Shown: positions 5,120-33,208 of the stretch, piece by piece | Layout: the number at the start of each line of letters is the position of its first letter | How positions within the stretch are numbered: the stretch's first letter is position 1 | Origin: a virus | Length of the DNA stretch: 34,317 bases | IMG/VR virus record: IMGVR_UViG_3300023284_001620 | Coordinates: 1-34,317 of that record | Reading direction: 5' to 3' (one strand) | Notes under the pieces: model-generated | Told to the model about the DNA's origin: nothing | Database searches by the model: none | Seen by the model: the letters and a program-made list of their open reading frames with translations, nothing else | Program-made: the position numbers and the translations under genes

Positions 5120-5361
5120 AACTCGCTTTCATCCGTCGGTAGTCTTTAAAGAGAAGACTCGCTTATACACTACGGGTGTCTCGTCCATGTTGGCTCGCTA
5201 ATCGGATACAGGGGTCTTCCGCATCTAGGCTCGCTTATTAATTGAGGGTGTCTCGGGGATATTGGCTCGCTTCAGACCTAAGGTTATCTTTCCTCTTGAG
5301 GCTCGCTTAACCGTAACGGATGTCTCCCCTTCATTGGCTCTTTATTTTGAAATTTGTCTCC
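5120..5361 (-). repeat. Short TIGR-type array (array 2), about 6-7 units
   Basis: On the plus strand the octamer GGCTCGCT (first copies AACTCGCT and GACTCGCT) recurs at 5120, 5156, 5192, 5228, 5264, 5300 and, degenerate, 5336: an exact 36-bp period. Half-way through each period lies the second repeat (GGTGTCT, GGTTATCT, GATGTCT variants). The two spacers per unit are 9-10 nt and differ from unit to unit. This is the same layout and the same repeat sequences as the large array at 19.4-20.5 kb, so it should use the same TasA-like protein. The last degenerate unit runs into the final codons of polA. Strand given as minus to match the flanking transcription; transcript direction is not proven. 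Confidence 0.85.
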
Positions 5362-17658: not shown

Positions 17659-19296
17659 TTACACGTTTTGGATTCCTCGAAACCCTGCACATTTCTTTAT
17701 CAGGGCTAGATTTACTTCGTGACCAGTTCTTTCATACCGGTAGGCGAGTCTCAGTACTCCTTTGATGTCCCGCCCGGTAAGGTGAAAGTTTTCTCTGCAC
17801 AGTTCTTCCACGTGTGCATCTGATAGAGACGGTAGGAATTGGTCTCTCAGCACCTTCCACATTCTTGGCAGTTCCTCGTCCCTCGGCTGCCCGTAGTTCA
17901 AGATCGCTGCGCATCTTGACAGGATCGCATCGTCCATGTCGTCGGCTCGATTCGTCGTCAGGAATATGGTGTTATTTTGGTATTCCAGCGTCCTCAAGAA
18001 GACTGCTACCACTGCATTTTGCACCAGGTCGGTTCCTCTTTCCCGCCCGAACACGTCGAACTCGTCCAGCAGGATCATACAGTGACCCCATCGTGCCGCC
18101 CGCTGGTAAACTTCCTGCAGTTTTCCTTCGATCGCCTCCGGGTTGATTCCCAATTGCCCCGAGTGCACCATATACAGAGGGGCTTTCTGTATTTCAGCGT
18201 ACACTTCCGCCGTCAGTGTTTTCCCCAATCCCGGCCGGCCTGTTAACAGCACCACATTTCCACCTGTCTTCCCGCCGACGATATCTTCCTGTATCAAGTT
18301 CAATTCTTCTGTCAGCGTGTCCAAAAGTTCCATCGTATCTTCTGGCAGTACCAGTTTCTCCCGTATTCCGTCGTCGTACTCGTAGATTTCCAGGTTGTCC
18401 GTGTGAACTTCCATCCCCTCGTTCAAACCGAGGTGAAAACACGGCAACATGAAGGTACACGGATATTCCTTGAAGGCAGTTGAATCTTCGGGCAGAACTT
18501 CCTTGATCGCTCCGAAAAGCCTTGATTTTTCTGATCTTGCCAAGTATTCCTGTACCCGTAAGTTCGTTCGACCTCTCGCCACTGCTCTCCCTTCTTCGTC
18601 GATCTTTAGTTCACAGACTACCTTTCCCCCACCAAGAGTAGATAGTTCCAGTTCGGGTCTATCCCTGTGCCAGTAGCTCCTTTCCTGGAGCATTTCCGTC
18701 GTAATCTTCAGCTGGCAGCCATATAAATCCCGCAGTTCCAAGAAGTGTTCGAAAGATTTCCCGTACGCTTCAATCCGTTCGGGGGTTTCTTTTTCCCATC
18801 CTTTCGACCAGAGCATTCCCACCAGGGTCTCTCCCTTCACATCCTCTCCATCGAACGAAATATGAAAGGACTGCATCTCTCCCCCGACCGTCAATGATTT
18901 TAAGCTGATCGTCAGATCGGCTAGTGAGTCTCTCGTTGAGGCGGAATACTGAACCCCCGTCACCATCGCAGCACATAGGGGGCCGTTTCTCCTAAACACC
19001 CACCCGAGTTCCACGTTTGTGGTAAAATAGTCGATGAACGCCGCCTCTGCCACATTCAGTGACCCTGGCTTCGCGTTCGTTGGATCTTTTTGGGCTTTCT
19101 CCCAAGAAGAGATTTGCCGGCGGATTCCTACACCAGCTTTGTCAGCCGCAAGGGCAGTCTTTAATTTCGAGAACTGGGATTTCCCCAATGCCCTTAAATC
19201 CACCGAAATACTATCACCAGGATTTCGGTACTTCTCCATCGATACGTCTAATTCGACTAGCACCTCGTGAAACGTCGCTGGAATATTTACTAGCAT
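17659..19296 (-). CDS. AAA+ ATPase
   Basis: 545 residues. The C-terminal half is an AAA+ module: Walker A LLTGRPGLGKTLTAEVYAE, Walker B CMILLDEFDVFGRER, sensor 1 IFLTTNRADDMDDAIL, an arginine-finger-like SRC, and a small lid domain. The N-terminal ~280 residues are beta-rich and unlike any domain I recognise; they probably bind substrate. The module resembles FtsH/spastin-type remodelling ATPases, without a protease domain. Substrate unknown. It is the first gene downstream of the large TIGR array in the direction of transcription, separated by a strong hairpin; GGAAAGG precedes the ATG. Confidence 0.85.
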   Translation of the reverse strand: MLVNIPATFHEVLVELDVSMEKYRNPGDSISVDLRALGKSQFSKLKTALAADKAGVGIRRQISSWEKAQKDPTNAKPGSLNVAEAAFIDYFTTNVELGWVFRRNGPLCAAMVTGVQYSASTRDSLADLTISLKSLTVGGEMQSFHISFDGEDVKGETLVGMLWSKGWEKETPERIEAYGKSFEHFLELRDLYGCQLKITTEMLQERSYWHRDRPELELSTLGGGKVVCELKIDEEGRAVARGRTNLRVQEYLARSEKSRLFGAIKEVLPEDSTAFKEYPCTFMLPCFHLGLNEGMEVHTDNLEIYEYDDGIREKLVLPEDTMELLDTLTEELNLIQEDIVGGKTGGNVVLLTGRPGLGKTLTAEVYAEIQKAPLYMVHSGQLGINPEAIEGKLQEVYQRAARWGHCMILLDEFDVFGRERGTDLVQNAVVAVFLRTLEYQNNTIFLTTNRADDMDDAILSRCAAILNYGQPRDEELPRMWKVLRDQFLPSLSDAHVEELCRENFHLTGRDIKGVLRLAYRYERTGHEVNLALIKKCAGFRGIQNV

Positions 19297-19323: not shown

Positions 19324-19351
19324 GATAATACCGCCTTTCAGCGGTATTATC
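19324..19351 (-). terminator. Strong hairpin at the downstream end of TIGR array 1
   Basis: GATAATACCGC pairs perfectly with GCGGTATTATC (11 bp, 6-base loop). It lies between the array and the AAA+ gene. There is no U-run, so it may be a processing or stabilising hairpin for the array transcript rather than a true terminator. Confidence 0.5.
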
Positions 19352-19365
19352 CATCTTCCTGTTAA

Positions 19366-20530
19366 GTACGCTTGCCATCTTCGGTTGTCTTACTACACAA
19401 GGCTCGCTCGCCTTCGTCGGGTATCTTTCTACGCATGGCTCGCTTTTTGTTGTCGGGTGACTAGCAGATTGAGGCTCACTTGCGATCGTCTGGTGTCTGT
19501 TATGGATAGACTCGCTTTTATCGTAGGGTGTATACCAAAAGAGGCTCGCTCTGACCTGAGGTTATCTTACTTCTTAGGCTCGCTATTAACTCTAGATTGT
19601 CTTGTGACGGTCGGCTCGCTATTAACTCTAGATTGTCTTGTGACGGTCGGCTCGCTTCTGAACCCAGGTTGTCTAATGAGCTACGGCTCGCTTCTAGATT
19701 TCGGATGTCTTCATCGCTTTGGCTCGCTTGTGAGGTTGTCTTGGAGCACAAGGCTCGCTTCCTGTCAACGGGTGTCTAATAGCGCTCGGCTCGCTTAGGA
19801 GAACAGGGTATCTTGGTGCGTCTAGGCTCGCTTGAATTCTTCGGTTGGAGAGACTCGCTCTGCATCGAAGATTATTTTACAAAGTAAGGCTCGCTCTGAC
19901 CTGAGGTTATCTTGCATCATTAGACTCGCTTTTTATCGTAGGGTGACTACACCGTAACGGCTCGCTTGCGTCGACGGGTGTCTTCATCGTTTTGGCTCGC
20001 TTGCTGTCTTGGGATGTATTAATCGTTTTGGCTCGCTCGGGGCGTTCGGTTGTCTTAGAATGATAGACTCGCTTGTCAACAAAGGGTGTCTCCCCATTTA
20101 AGGCTCGCTTCTTGTCAACGGATGTCTTGTAACGCTCGGCTCGCTCAGTGGGAAAAGTTGTCTTCCCATTTTAGGCTCGCTCGTAGGTCTTGGTTGTCTC
20201 ATTCATGATGGCTCGCTCGGGAAAAAGGTTGTCTTCAATCACAGGCTCGCTTGCGTCGACGGGTGTCTAAAACTGGCGGCTCGCTTATCGTTCAAGGGTG
20301 CCTTTTGACGTGAGACTTGCTGTTAACCATAGGTTGTCTCGTGGACTAAGGCTCGCTTTTAACCATAGGATGGCTTATATCGTTCGGCTCGCTTCAAGTG
20401 CACGGGTGTCTTACGTATTTAGGCTCGCTTATCGGTCGAGGATATCTTTTCCTTATTGGCACTCTTCTCCCTTTCGGGTGTATCTCACTTTTTTGGCTCG
20501 CTTCACTTGTGGGGTTGACTTTTAGTCCTC
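19366..20530 (-). repeat. Large TIGR-type array (array 1), about 33 units of 36 bp
   Basis: On the plus strand GGCTCGCT (or a 1-2 base variant) starts at 19401, 19437, 19473, 19509, 19543, 19577, 19613 and so on to 20495: 32 clear copies plus a degenerate one at 19366, mostly 36 bp apart (a few 34, 35 or 37; single short units of 31 and 27). Between successive copies lies a second conserved octamer, GGTTGTCT/GGGTGTCT. Each unit is therefore repeat 1, spacer A (about 9-10), repeat 2, spacer B (about 9-10), and the spacers vary. This is the described design of TIGR arrays, which give ~36-nt dual-guide tigRNAs for Tas proteins, and not CRISPR. Strand is set to match the TasA-like gene; transcript direction is unproven. 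Confidence 0.88.
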
Positions 20531-20547
20531 GACTAGTATCCATTCAA
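20519..20547 (-). promoter_or_regulatory. Weak candidate promoter at the head of array 1
   Basis: On the minus strand TTGAAT, 17 bases, TAAAAG: 4 of 6 matches at each hexamer. It lies right where the array begins, and the T-run after the tRNA-like RNA overlaps it. It may be chance. Confidence 0.22.
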
Positions 20548-20551
20548 AAAA

Positions 20552-20748
20552 TGGCGGGCGTGGCAGGGGTCGAACCTGCTTCGGCGACGGTACGGTTGCT
20601 CCCGTCGCTCTGCATGGGTTGGAGCGGCAACGCCCGACCCCCACACTGTCGTCCCGGCCCAGAGGTCGTCTCGTTCCAGTAAGCAGTCATCAGGTTGCCC
20701 TCTGCTGTAACCAAAACGCCGTTTCTCTATCCAGTACGCCCATAATTT
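20552..20748 (-). ncRNA. Structured RNA with tRNA-like 3' domain (copy 1)
   Basis: It begins straight after the TasA-like stop with AAATTATGGGCG. The last 84 bases (20552-20635) fold like a tRNA: an acceptor helix pairing GGGCGT with ACGCCC (plus one terminal mismatch), a T arm GCAGG-TTCGACC-CCTGC with canonical loop, an anticodon-position stem GCGACGG/CCGTCGC, and a 3' GCCA followed by six T. The anticodon-position loop is 11 bases (GAGCAACCGTA) rather than 7, so it is not a normal tRNA. A second copy at 33010-33208 has the same layout, the same loop and covarying stems. Function unknown; its place between the TasA-like gene and its array is suggestive. Confidence 0.6.
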
Positions 20749-21660
20749 CTATGCTGCTCGTTCCTCCCTGTGCACGATTTCCAGTTTTGCTTCCGCGTAT
20801 GTCGGCATGACCATCAAGTTTTCCATCGGCCGCCACTGGTTATACAGGTCGCAAAGGAACATCTTCATCATGTACCGAATTGCTTGCCGGTGGCGCCGTG
20901 CTTTTGACGCCCGCCTTTCCACTTCGGTGTACTTTCCGTCGTTTTTCTTTCCCCACGTCGCGTGGTTTTCCATCCGGAGCTTGTAATCGTCGTAGTACTT
21001 CCGGTATCGTTCGTTCCCCGATCGGAGGAATGATACCCCAAGCACCCCAAGCAGTTTCGTCCGCAGAAACGGGTTGTACGTGATCGCCTTCTTGGTTTTC
21101 TGCGTCCCGTCTGCCGCTGTGTACTCTCGGTCTACCAGGTGTTCCTTCCGCTTCGACCGGCCCATGCCGTCGTCAGCCACATCCAGCCCTGCGTAAGCCC
21201 ATAGGGACGACGGGTATCGTGCTTTGTGAATGTCAAACTCTGACAATATTACCGCCGCCATTGTCGGCCCGATCCCTTTCACATCCTTCAGCCAGTTGTC
21301 CCAGATCGGAATTCCCGCCAGTTCCTGCTCCAGCGAACCGAAGTGGGTATCCTCGATTTCGTGCAGCGACCGGTATTGCCGGATCAACGTTAGTTCCGTC
21401 ATTGACGATATCAATCGCATTCCTTTGAATGGCGTCGTCCCCGATTTCTTGATCATCGCGTCCGTCACCTGTTCAAATTCCTTCGTAATTTCGTCCAGAA
21501 TTGACTTCGCTTCCGCGTCCGTCATTTCTTCTTGGGTTTGGTTTGGTTGCTGCCCCACCTTGGCCCGAAAATTCATTGCCAGTCGGTTGCCGACGGCAAT
21601 CCGCAGGCTTTGAATATCATAGGTTCCCCGAACCAGTGCCCGTAAATTTTCTTTCCTCAT
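20749..21660 (-). CDS. tasA: TasA-like protein (nuclease-less TIGR-associated, Nop/IS110 C-terminal-like)
   Basis: Read from the ATG at 21660 (AGGAG eight bases upstream; the longer reading to 21780 is unsupported) the protein has 303 residues. Its core IWDNWLKDVKGIGPTMAAVI with SEFDIHKARYPSSLWAYAGL is the helix-hairpin-helix and following segment of the IS110/IS116 transposase C-terminal domain, which is related to the Nop domain of box C/D snoRNP proteins. The usual N-terminal DEDD/RuvC domain of IS110 is absent and there is no HNH or RuvC. The C-terminus is basic and rich in Tyr and Arg (RRASKARRHRQAIRYMMKM), fit for RNA binding. With the array beside it this matches TasA, the nuclease-free member of the TIGR-Tas family, which binds tigRNA and would target DNA without cutting it. 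Confidence 0.8.
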   Translation of the reverse strand: MRKENLRALVRGTYDIQSLRIAVGNRLAMNFRAKVGQQPNQTQEEMTDAEAKSILDEITKEFEQVTDAMIKKSGTTPFKGMRLISSMTELTLIRQYRSLHEIEDTHFGSLEQELAGIPIWDNWLKDVKGIGPTMAAVILSEFDIHKARYPSSLWAYAGLDVADDGMGRSKRKEHLVDREYTAADGTQKTKKAITYNPFLRTKLLGVLGVSFLRSGNERYRKYYDDYKLRMENHATWGKKNDGKYTEVERRASKARRHRQAIRYMMKMFLCDLYNQWRPMENLMVMPTYAEAKLEIVHREERAA

Positions 21661-21683
21661 CTTGGGTTCTCCTAAAAGGGTTG

Positions 21684-21702
21684 GGGGAGCTCTCCGCTCC
21701 CC
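21684..21702 (-). terminator. Hairpin between HTH gene and TasA-like gene
   Basis: GGGGAGC pairs with GCTCCCC across a five-base loop, 24 bases before the TasA-like ATG. On the minus strand CAACCCTTTT follows. It may be an attenuator lowering TasA-like expression, or a partial terminator of the HTH gene. Confidence 0.45.
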
Positions 21703-21719
21703 TCTTTTATACCCCGATT

Positions 21720-22451
21720 TCAGGTTTTTCTCCCGTACTTCTTTCGGTCTTCGATCTTTGCCGCCTTTTCCTTCGCCCACGTCATGACGTTAAATCGACG
21801 GTAAAAGACCTCCCGTCCAAAAATTCTATGCGGTGGCATGTCACCCTTCTTCCTCCACGCGTGCAGCGTCGACGGGGCGAGTCCAACCAGTTTCGCCGTT
21901 TCCTGGTTCGAGATATACGCCTTACCCGGTCGGATTGTAGAATGAACTCCCATAGGAGACTTTCCTATCTCCGTTCGAGGATGGTCGGGTTGTTTGTGCA
22001 TCAGATTACGCACTTTATCGACCTTCACACGTGTTTGCTTAGCCAAGGGCACCTTCTTCGGCAGCTTTGGCAGTTTGGTCTTAAACGCCATTCTTTTCCA
22101 CGCCCGCACTTCCGCCTCAGCATAGACATATCGTCGACCGTTGTATTCTGATTTCGGACCTAGTCCGTCGGATCGCATCTTCGCCAGGGTTGAGTGGCCA
22201 ATACCAAGGAATTTTGCTGCGTCCCTCGTCCCCCAAAAATGCCCTTTTCCTGCGGATCGTTTTACTTTCTTTGGGGGTTTCATGTCCACCCCTGCTCCAT
22301 TCCGTAGGAAACCCACGAAATCGGTGCACAATTGTATCGCCTCGGGCGCCGTCAGTACCACCAACGGACCCACCGGTCCTGATTGGGTCAAAAACTTTAG
22401 CGCCTCCTCGTTCAGGACGTTTCTCTGTTCGTTCGTCAAGGGTTCCGTCAT
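21720..22451 (-). CDS. DNA-binding protein with two excisionase/MerR-like HTH domains
   Basis: 243 residues with two similar winged-HTH units: FWGTRDAAKFLGIGHSTLAK (about residue 90), followed by a wing with YNGRRYVYAEAEVRAW, and YISNQETAKLVGLAPSTLHA (about residue 180), followed by IFGREVFYRRFNVMTW. Each resembles the HTH_17 / excisionase type. A basic Lys/Pro linker joins them. It sits directly upstream of the TasA-like gene, with an AGGAG site, and may be co-transcribed. It could regulate the locus or be a phage recombination directionality-type factor; there is no integrase in the window to support the latter. Confidence 0.6.
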   Translation of the reverse strand: MTEPLTNEQRNVLNEEALKFLTQSGPVGPLVVLTAPEAIQLCTDFVGFLRNGAGVDMKPPKKVKRSAGKGHFWGTRDAAKFLGIGHSTLAKMRSDGLGPKSEYNGRRYVYAEAEVRAWKRMAFKTKLPKLPKKVPLAKQTRVKVDKVRNLMHKQPDHPRTEIGKSPMGVHSTIRPGKAYISNQETAKLVGLAPSTLHAWRKKGDMPPHRIFGREVFYRRFNVMTWAKEKAAKIEDRKKYGRKT

Positions 22452-26614: not shown

Positions 26615-26642
26615 TATATAAGAACTTTTACCGCCTTGTCAA
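26615..26642 (-). promoter_or_regulatory. Promoter of repeated module (copy A)
   Basis: Minus strand TTGACA, 16 bases, TATATA. The leader and flanks are nearly identical to those at 31251-31279, which has a 17-base spacer. It drives the 26389-26583 gene. Confidence 0.8.
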
Positions 26643-26653
26643 CCTTTTAATCC

Positions 26654-26693
26654 ATGCACTCCGTGCAGAACTGGTATGCTCTCGGTGCAGAAC
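26654..26693. promoter_or_regulatory. Direct-repeat operator upstream of promoter copy A
   Basis: Two copies of an 18-base motif, ATGCWCTCSGTGCAGAAC, 22 bases apart (two helical turns), just upstream of the -35 box. The nearer copy contains the perfect palindrome TGCAC-TCC-GTGCA. Likely a site for a dimeric regulator; the identical pair recurs at 31291-31330. Confidence 0.65.
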
Positions 26694-26742
26694 CTACGCT
26701 TTCACTCATCGGGTGTCTTAGTTGCATCGGCATTTGGAAATG

Positions 26743-28018: not shown

Positions 28019-28053
28019 TTTTCCGTTCCTTAACTAGTGGTTTCTTATGTCCT

Positions 28054-28082
28054 ATTATACCATATTCCACTAGTATAGTCAA
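28054..28082 (-). promoter_or_regulatory. Consensus early promoter (module C)
   Basis: Minus strand TTGACT, 17 bases, TATAAT. Drives the 27578 gene and SprT. Shares a fixed upstream element with the promoters at 30.2 and 31.9 kb. Confidence 0.9.
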
Positions 28083-28091
28083 CTAGTCTCT

Positions 28092-28153
28092 CCTAGTGAC
28101 TTCCACCTTCATCTTCCTGGATTGTGTTATTTCCTCTATGGTAGTTTGGGAAC
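28092..28153. promoter_or_regulatory. Conserved upstream element of promoter module C
   Basis: Minus strand TGGAAGTCACTRGG nine bases before the -35, and GTTCCCAAA about 40 bases further upstream. The same two boxes at the same distances occur at 30239-30301 and 31931-31993. Confidence 0.65.
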
Positions 28154-30173: not shown

Positions 30174-30200
30174 TTGGGTTTCCTTTCTCATCATGTCACT

Positions 30201-30229
30201 ATTATAACATGTTTCCCTAGTAATGTCAA
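30201..30229 (-). promoter_or_regulatory. Consensus early promoter (module B)
   Basis: Minus strand TTGACA, 17 bases, TATAAT: perfect. Drives genes 30173 downward. Confidence 0.92.
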
Positions 30230-30238
30230 CAATCCTAT

Positions 30239-30301
30239 CCCAGTGACTTCCACTAACGTTTTCAGGGTCTCTTCCCCTGACAGGATTGCACATTTGGGAA
30301 C
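30239..30301. promoter_or_regulatory. Conserved upstream element of promoter module B
   Basis: TGGAAGTCACTGGG starts nine bases before the -35 and GTTCCCAAA lies about 40 bases beyond, as in modules A and C. A small CAGGG/CCCTG hairpin lies between them in this copy only. Confidence 0.65.
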
Positions 30302-31250: not shown

Positions 31251-31279
31251 TATATAAGCACTTTTTGCCGCCGTGTCAA
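31251..31279 (-). promoter_or_regulatory. Promoter of repeated module (copy B)
   Basis: Minus strand TTGACA, 17 bases, TATATA. The leader, spacer and upstream repeats match copy A at 26615-26642 almost base for base. Confidence 0.8.
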
Positions 31280-31290
31280 CCTTTTAATCC

Positions 31291-31330
31291 ATGCACTCCG
31301 TGCAGAACTGGTATGCTCTCGGTGCAGAAC
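31291..31330. promoter_or_regulatory. Direct-repeat operator upstream of promoter copy B
   Basis: The same two 18-base motifs, 22 bases apart, as at 26654-26693, ending at the stop codon of the upstream gene. Confidence 0.65.
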
Positions 31331-31540
31331 CTACTCGGTCAAATCATCTCCGCTATATTTGCTGTAGGATTTATCGTGGTCTCCCGTAGCAAAAACTACC
31401 AAATCCCCATCCGCAATCTCTCTGCGAGACCGTTTGTCATGAACCCGGTGGATGAAATCAGGCAGACCGAAGGCCCGGACAGCAGCCATGTACCGCTCAT
31501 CCCGAAATCCTACAAAGTGTGTTGCTCTTGTTCCTAGCAT
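31331..31540 (-). CDS. Hypothetical protein, 69 residues
   Basis: Alpha/beta with RDERYMAAVRAFGLPDFIHR, DGDLVVFATGDHD and a polar end. Possibly DNA-associated; no family is recognised. GGGAAC lies before the ATG. Confidence 0.5.
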   Translation of the reverse strand: MLGTRATHFVGFRDERYMAAVRAFGLPDFIHRVHDKRSRREIADGDLVVFATGDHDKSYSKYSGDDLTE

Positions 31541-31866: not shown

Positions 31867-31892
31867 TTGGCTTTCTCCGTTCTGATGTACTA

Positions 31893-31921
31893 ATTATAGC
31901 ACTTTCTGTCGAAAAAGTCAA
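31893..31921 (-). promoter_or_regulatory. Consensus early promoter (module A)
   Basis: Minus strand TTGACT, 17 bases, TATAAT. Drives the 31555-31866 gene. Confidence 0.9.
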
Positions 31922-31930
31922 GTATCTTCT

Positions 31931-31993
31931 CCTAGTGACTTCCATCAACGTTATTAGCTGCAACCTCTAAGCGTATTTCATAGTTTTGGGAAC
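31931..31993. promoter_or_regulatory. Conserved upstream element of promoter module A
   Basis: TGGAAGTCACTAGG nine bases before the -35, then GTTCCCAAA about 40 bases upstream, next to the stop of the 31993-32982 gene. Same geometry as modules B and C. Confidence 0.65.
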
Positions 31994-32982: not shown

Positions 32983-33009
32983 TTGCCACCGTTAGTGCCC
33001 ATTTAAAAT

Positions 33010-33208
33010 TGGCGGACGTGGTGGGGGTTGCACCCACTTCTGCATTGGTACGGTTGCTCCCAATGCTCTACGTAAAGTGTGGTGGTAACACCCGGCTTCA
33101 CGTTATCATCCCGGCTAGAGATCGTCCCGCCTCAGTAGGCTGGCGCGGTTACCCGCCGCGTAACCAAAACGCCGTTTCTCTTTCCAGTACGCCCATAATT
33201 TCATACCG
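33010..33208 (-). ncRNA. Structured RNA with tRNA-like 3' domain (copy 2)
   Basis: It follows the RNase H stop (TGACGGTATGAAATTATGGGCG). The terminal 84 bases (33010-33093), the same length as copy 1, form an acceptor-like helix GGGTGT with ACGTCC (one GU and one GT swap), a T arm GTGGG-TGCAACC-CCCAC, a stem GCATTGG/CCAATGC with the same 11-base loop GAGCAACCGTA, and 3' GCCA. Stem bases differ from copy 1 but pairing is kept, so selection on structure is clear. Function unknown. Confidence 0.62.

What the first reader, a model, noticed from the sequence alone, without database searches (positions are those of the whole stretch)
19366..20530. Large tandem interspaced-guide (TIGR) array in a phage genome
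About 33 units of about 36 bp, each made of two different octamer repeats (GGCTCGCT and GGTTGTCT) separated by two variable 9-10 base spacers. CRISPR repeats are longer and have one repeat type with ~30-base spacers, so this is not CRISPR. The 36-nt unit with paired short guides is the hallmark of TIGR arrays, which are read into dual-guide tigRNAs. This is the strongest candidate for the special system in the window.
Basis: partly seen in the sequence, partly recalled or inferred. Interest (0 to 1): 0.95.

Follow-up and report, generated by a model that had tools for sequence, protein, structure and literature searches.

The report
Phage TIGR guide arrays with TasA

Summary
Array 1 (19365-20537) has 33 units, mostly 36 nt, and reads on the MINUS strand: edge AGCGAGCC, ~9-nt spacer, loop AAGACAACC, ~9-nt spacer. 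It has truncated edge repeats at both ends and a 13-bp hairpin after it. By sequence and predicted fold that protein is a Tas protein (profile match to TasH 6e-83 and TasR 4.5e-50; model Z 19.6 to TasR), without RuvC or HNH, so TasA. IMG/VR holds well over 100 contigs with the same repeats. Tas lies on the array's strand in 90 of 91 loci, and the box C/D pairs covary. In related phages the arrays turn over much faster than their flanks: two phages 96% identical beside the array share 10 of 20-22 units. Half-units are reused about 7 times more often within arrays than between them. No targets were found: none in this genome, none above chance in related phages. It is a new member of a known kind; target and biological role stay open.

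The parts
19365..20537 (-). TIGR array 1: 33 units (edge AGCGAGCC, ~9-nt spacer A, loop AAGACAACC, ~9-nt spacer B); 5' truncated first edge near 20532-20536, 3' truncated last edge AGCG at 19369-19372
5120..5340 (-). TIGR array 2: 6 units with the same repeats, directly downstream of polA; starts with truncated edge GAGCC, ends with truncated edge AGCGAG
20749..21660 (-). tasA: 303-aa solo Nop-domain (IS110 C-terminal-like) TIGR-associated protein; ATG preceded by AGGAG; the open frame extends to a GTG at 21780 with a low-confidence N-terminus
19326..19352 (-). hairpin of 13 bp (GATAATACCGCTG/..GCGGTATTATC) shortly after the last truncated edge; candidate terminator or attenuator before the AAA+ gene (weak U tract)
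   Evidence: not scored as a terminator by the scan
20550..20635 (-). tRNA-like element between tasA and array 1 (role unknown)
21720..22451 (-). neighbour upstream of tasA: protein with two HTH_17/excisionase-type domains
17659..19296 (-). neighbour downstream of array 1: AAA+ ATPase; a homologue turned up in only one of the related loci, so not a conserved part of the system

Best explanation
It is a phage-borne TIGR-TasA system. SHOWN by sequence: two arrays of dual-guide units and an adjacent TasA gene, all on one strand in the phage's main transcription direction. INFERRED from the tested relatives (Faure et al. 2025, PMC12045711): the arrays are transcribed as long precursors. TasA, acting as a dimer, binds the edge and loop repeats through their box C/D motifs. 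A host RNase trims the precursor to ~36-nt tigRNAs. Each TasA-tigRNA complex opens and bends an ~18-bp DNA site, spacer A pairing with one strand and spacer B with the other. Without a nuclease domain it should bind and block, or bend, rather than cut. INFERRED role (less sure than the identity): a rapidly re-targeted, non-cutting interference device of the phage against DNA other than its own, most likely competing mobile elements or host loci. SHOWN in relatives: guides turn over in whole units and half units much faster than the flanking genome, as expected if targets keep changing. The confidence given is for the identity as TIGR-TasA; for the inferred role it is about 0.5.
For: Unit anatomy and orientation. 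Paired box positions covary: edge 2-7 GC/GU/AU, p 1e-42 (phylogeny not corrected), and loop 20-25 includes CG and UA swaps. Tas homologues in 91 array loci, array on the same strand in 90 of 91, typical gap ~35 nt. Starting from the protein, at least 8 of 10 bacterial contigs show AGCGAG-type arrays close by. Profile match to TasH 6e-83, TasR 4.5e-50, IS621 1e-7; window protein alone 3e-8 and 7e-8. AlphaFold2 model pLDDT 85.9; Foldseek top ten all TasH/TasR; Z 19.6 to TasR (rmsd 2.0, 193 aligned), 14.4 to IS110, 7.4 to Nop5. No HNH/RuvC in the window protein. Spacer turnover: L021/L037 flanks 95.9% identical, 10 of 20-22 units shared.
Against: No target identified: none in the window, none above chance in 1 Mb of array loci apart from one weak excess, none in 0.26 Mb of array-family phage sequence, none by exact whole-IMG/VR search for two guide pairs beyond chance. 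Expression and processing untested. The window's arrays are less regular than most: units of 27, 31 and 34 nt, and a relaxed third base of box C (47% pyrimidine against a median of 0-5%), so some units may be dead.
Confidence: 0.93

Rival explanations
1. A decaying relic: the array was inherited with tasA, no longer works as guides, and is drifting.
For: Irregular unit lengths, an exact tandem duplicate and a relaxed box C in the window.
Against: Most units keep both boxes at 36 nt; tasA is intact and keeps the invariant residues of its 12-member alignment; the second array keeps clean repeats; related arrays turn over while repeats stay fixed.
Confidence: 0.08
2. A regulatory (not anti-element) guide system: TasA-tigRNAs bind host or own-phage promoters or replication sites to control expression or replication timing.
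For: TasA lacks a nuclease; genes beside tas in relatives are often replication genes: helicase, DNA polymerase, initiator, Holliday resolvase (no background control); array 2 sits behind polA in the window.
Against: No matching sites in the phage's own genome or in own loci; fast spacer turnover fits moving targets better than fixed regulatory sites.
Confidence: 0.2
3. An IS110-type transposase remnant with an unrelated tandem repeat next to it.
For: Pfam calls the protein Transposase_20 and PHROGs call it transposase.
Against: The 303 aa hold the Nop-like region only; closest solved relatives are TasH and TasR, well ahead of IS621/ISCro4; the array is on the same strand in 90 of 91 loci.
Confidence: 0.01
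4. CRISPR or CRISPR-like array.
For: Repeats and variable spacers.
Against: Two alternating 8-9-nt repeats and 8-9-nt spacers; no Cas-like domain among the neighbouring proteins scanned; Tas protein present.
Confidence: 0.005

Closest known systems
TIGR-TasA (solo Nop domain, e.g. Flavonifractor plautii FpTIGR; Faure et al. 2025, PMC12045711)
   Same: Dual-repeat array, 36-nt units, ~9-nt spacers, single Tas protein without nuclease, phage setting, truncated edges at both ends.
   Different: Repeats are AGCGAGCC / AAGACAACC (box D AG, box C CC) rather than the UG...CCA described for TasR; 33+6 units where the paper gives 5-15 as most often; second array 15 kb away; third base of box C not fixed. 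The FpTIGR sequence itself was not compared.
TIGR-TasH (Salicola phage CGphi29; PDB 9w04, 9vzx, 21kl and others)
   Same: Closest solved protein by profile (6e-83); 8-nt spacers as in most relatives here.
   Different: TasH has an N-terminal HNH nuclease; the window protein has none.
TIGR-TasR (PDB 9mty)
   Same: Same Nop fold, Z 19.6, rmsd 2.0 over 193 residues.
   Different: TasR has a RuvC domain and cuts DNA.
IS110/IS621 bridge-RNA recombinases
   Same: Shared Nop-like RNA-binding domain (Z 14).
   Different: No DEDD domain seen and no bridge RNA found here; array of guides instead of a single bridge RNA.
Box C/D snoRNP Nop5/Prp31
   Same: Distant fold similarity (Z ~7) and box C/D logic.
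   Different: RNA methylation guides; no sequence-level match here.

Membership tests
TIGR-Tas (dual-repeat type) | Two distinct alternating 8-12-nt repeats separated by ~9-nt spacers, ~36-nt unit | tested here: met
TIGR-Tas (dual-repeat type) | Truncated edge repeat at the 5' and 3' ends of the array | tested here: met
   Array 1: CGAGG.../AGCGTAC; array 2: GAGCC.../AGCGAGTT
TIGR-Tas (dual-repeat type) | Rho-independent terminator after the array | tested here: inconclusive
   13-bp hairpin after array 1 but weak U tract; none found at array 2
TIGR-Tas (dual-repeat type) | Adjacent Nop-domain Tas protein | tested here: met
   TasH 6e-83 and TasR 4.5e-50 by profile; fold Z 19.6; adjacency across loci
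TIGR-Tas (dual-repeat type) | Box C/D motifs shared by edge and loop repeats, covarying and forming a pair | tested here: met
   Logo and covariation across related arrays
TIGR-Tas (dual-repeat type) | Array processed to 36-nt tigRNAs in a Tas-dependent way | not testable with these tools
   Needs RNA sequencing
TIGR-Tas (dual-repeat type) | Tandem-spacer targeting of opposite strands of one DNA site | not testable with these tools
   No natural target found to test geometry
TasA subtype | Nop domain without HNH or RuvC | tested here: met
   303 aa, only Transposase_20/Nop region; first ~40 residues of the longer frame have low confidence and are likely untranslated
TasH / TasR subtype | N-terminal HNH or RuvC nuclease | tested here: not met
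   one relative in the set matches HNH, the window does not
IS110 transposase | DEDD RuvC-like domain plus C-terminal catalytic serine region | tested here: inconclusive
   303-aa Nop-only protein; Pfam sees only a partial Transposase_20 match over residues 164-213; the catalytic residues were not examined one by one

The most novel reading that the evidence does not exclude
TIGR arrays have a CRISPR-like adaptive dynamic without CRISPR-like adaptation genes. New guide pairs arise by swapping whole units and by recombining half-units across the edge and loop repeats, so related phages carry mosaic arrays with largely conserved order, and TasA uses them as fast-changing, non-cutting interference guides against other elements.
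Probability: 0.4. Interest if true: 0.75.

Novelty: new member of a known kind. Interest (0 to 1): 0.5.

Why it matters
TIGR-Tas was described in 2025, with three open questions named by its discoverers: what the guides target, how arrays gain new guides, and what nuclease-free TasA does. This locus opens a family of well over a hundred phage arrays sharing one repeat type. Within it the second question becomes testable by comparison: arrays of near-identical phages differ in half of their units, half-units recombine, and order is largely kept. That gives a natural series for finding where guides come from and what they recognise.

Tried and rejected
Self-targets in the window, in both geometries (A+rcB and rcB+A) and the same-strand control, gaps 0-2: no excess over mispaired guides. 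Own-locus and cross-locus targets over 1 Mb: no excess in own loci; one weak excess in the predicted geometry at gap 1 (54 against 33 +/- 7), scattered over unrelated loci and not convincing after about 120 tests. Array-family phages, 0.26 Mb of sequence: none. The most widely shared guide pair (11 arrays): 0 sites in 66 records and 1 in all of IMG/VR, within chance. The window's duplicated guide pair: 0 in IMG/VR. Polarity of new units: mean shift of shared units +0.09 towards the 3' end, pairs not independent, two families disagree; no claim made. AAA+ neighbour as a conserved partner: only one other locus carries a homologue. IMG/VR search with the AAA+ protein: nothing. Phages collection by protein: only a 28% match in a Microcystis phage; by DNA: nothing. 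tRNA finder and Rfam on the window: nothing. Laying the whole record as a file and drawing genome relatives were not available.

Full report
THE OBSERVATION. The window is an IMG/VR virus record of 34,317 bases with phage genes on the minus strand: major head protein, maturation protease, portal, terminase, DNA polymerase A. At 19365-20537 there are 33 units, mostly 36 nt. 29 edge repeats have a neighbour at 34-37 nt; 300 shuffles give at most 2. On the minus strand, the strand of the genes, the repeats are AGCGAGCC (edge) and AAGACAACC-like (loop), with ~9-nt spacers between. The array starts with a truncated edge and ends with a truncated edge (AGCGTAC), followed shortly by a 13-bp hairpin.

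A second array of six units with the same repeats lies at 5120-5340, directly after the DNA polymerase A gene. The partner gene lies 210 nt upstream of array 1. Its open frame runs 20749-21780, but the likely start is the ATG at 21660, with AGGAG in front and agreement with relatives, giving 303 aa.

THE PROTEIN IS A TAS PROTEIN. Pfam sees only Transposase_20 above its cut-off. A profile of 61 homologues from array loci matches, among all solved structures, TasH (6e-83), TasR (4.5e-50) and then IS621/ISCro4 (1e-7). The window protein alone matches TasH and TasR at 3e-8 and 7e-8. The AlphaFold2 model (pLDDT 85.9) has TasH/TasR as its ten best Foldseek matches. Alignment scores are Z 19.6 to TasR (rmsd 2.0, 193 residues), 14.4 to IS110 and 7.4 to Nop5. 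No HNH or RuvC domain is found in it, so it is TasA, the nuclease-free type of Faure et al. 2025 (PMC12045711).

THE FAMILY. The logo of 1,203 distinct 36-nt units is pseudosymmetric: [GA]AGCGAGCCA, 8 variable bases, [GA]AGAxAxCCA, 8 variable bases. Box positions covary as pairs: edge 2-7 as GC/GU/AU; loop 20-25 as GC with CG, UA and AU swaps. The corresponding positions of the two repeats (36 with 18, 9 with 27) share the most information (phylogeny not corrected). Tas homologues occur in 91 loci, on the array's strand in 90, most often about 35 nt before the array. Starting from the protein instead, 10 bacterial contigs were found, in MAGs from Hydrogenedentota to Moraniibacteriota, and AGCGAG-type arrays stand close to tas in at least 8 of them. 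The genes next to tas are often replication genes (no background control was run). The window's array is an outlier in one respect: the third base of box C is not fixed (47% pyrimidine; median 0-5% over 84 arrays).

HOW ARRAYS CHANGE. In a family of 20 related arrays, units are shared in a mosaic. L021 and L037 are 95.9% identical over 3.6 kb beside the array but share only 10 of 20-22 units, mostly in order, with other units replaced between the anchors. L010 and L109 have the same array except for the first unit, where spacer A is kept and spacer B differs and resembles spacer B of a later unit. Within arrays, spacers recur with a different partner about seven times more often than between arrays (33 against 4.6-4.9 per 10,000 pairs). 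The window shows the same: three identical spacer B pairs with different spacer A, against none expected, and one tandem unit duplicate. These are the marks of unit and half-unit recombination. No polarity could be claimed.

TARGETS. The known geometry predicts sites of the form 5'-A-revcomp(B)-3' with gaps of 0-2 (derived from the 8-nt 3' overhangs in PMC12045711; the reverse order was tested as well). None was found in the window, and none above chance in own loci. The one excess across loci (gap 1, 54 against 33 +/- 7) is scattered and weak. The array-family phage sequences give none. Exact searches of all IMG/VR for two guide pairs gave 1 and 0 hits. So the guides do not aim at their own genome or, as far as seen, at kin phages; what they aim at is unknown.

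VERDICT. That it makes tigRNAs and binds DNA is inferred from tested relatives. That it serves a fast-changing contest with other DNA elements is inferred from spacer turnover and the lack of self-targets. Regulation of host or phage DNA is the main rival.

Noticed in passing
window 20550-20635 (-) and 33008-33093 (-): Two tRNA-like elements, 71% identical, with acceptor stem and CCA, D-like stem, a 7-bp stem with an invariant 11-nt loop GAGCAACCGTA, and a T-arm; six pairs changed on both sides and all 22 pairs kept. Neither ARAGORN nor Rfam recognises them. One sits between tasA and array 1 and might be cut by tRNA-processing RNases to free the array transcript.
   Followed up: partly
window 20707-20749 (-) and 33160-33202 (-): A 43-nt repeat, 98% identical, ahead of each tRNA-like element, with short frames MGVLDRETAFWLQQRAT and MGVLERETAFWLRGG.
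   Followed up: partly
window 26626-26704 and 31263-31341: A 79-nt direct repeat, 94% identical, in a stretch of small genes.
   Followed up: no
window 28052-28106, 30199-30253, 31891-31945: Three diverged 55-nt repeats in the small-gene region, possibly shared promoters or leaders (D7).
   Followed up: no
L009:761-2221 (-): A 487-aa Tas relative next to an array of the same repeat type, much longer than the solo Nop proteins; in the alignment that holds it one member matches Pfam HNH and two match HNH PHROGs, so TasH-like proteins appear to share this repeat type.
   Followed up: partly
L202:5929-6336: A Moraniibacteriota (CPR) contig with the usual edge AGCGAGCC but a different loop, ACAGAAACA, beside a 40% identical TasA.
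   Followed up: no
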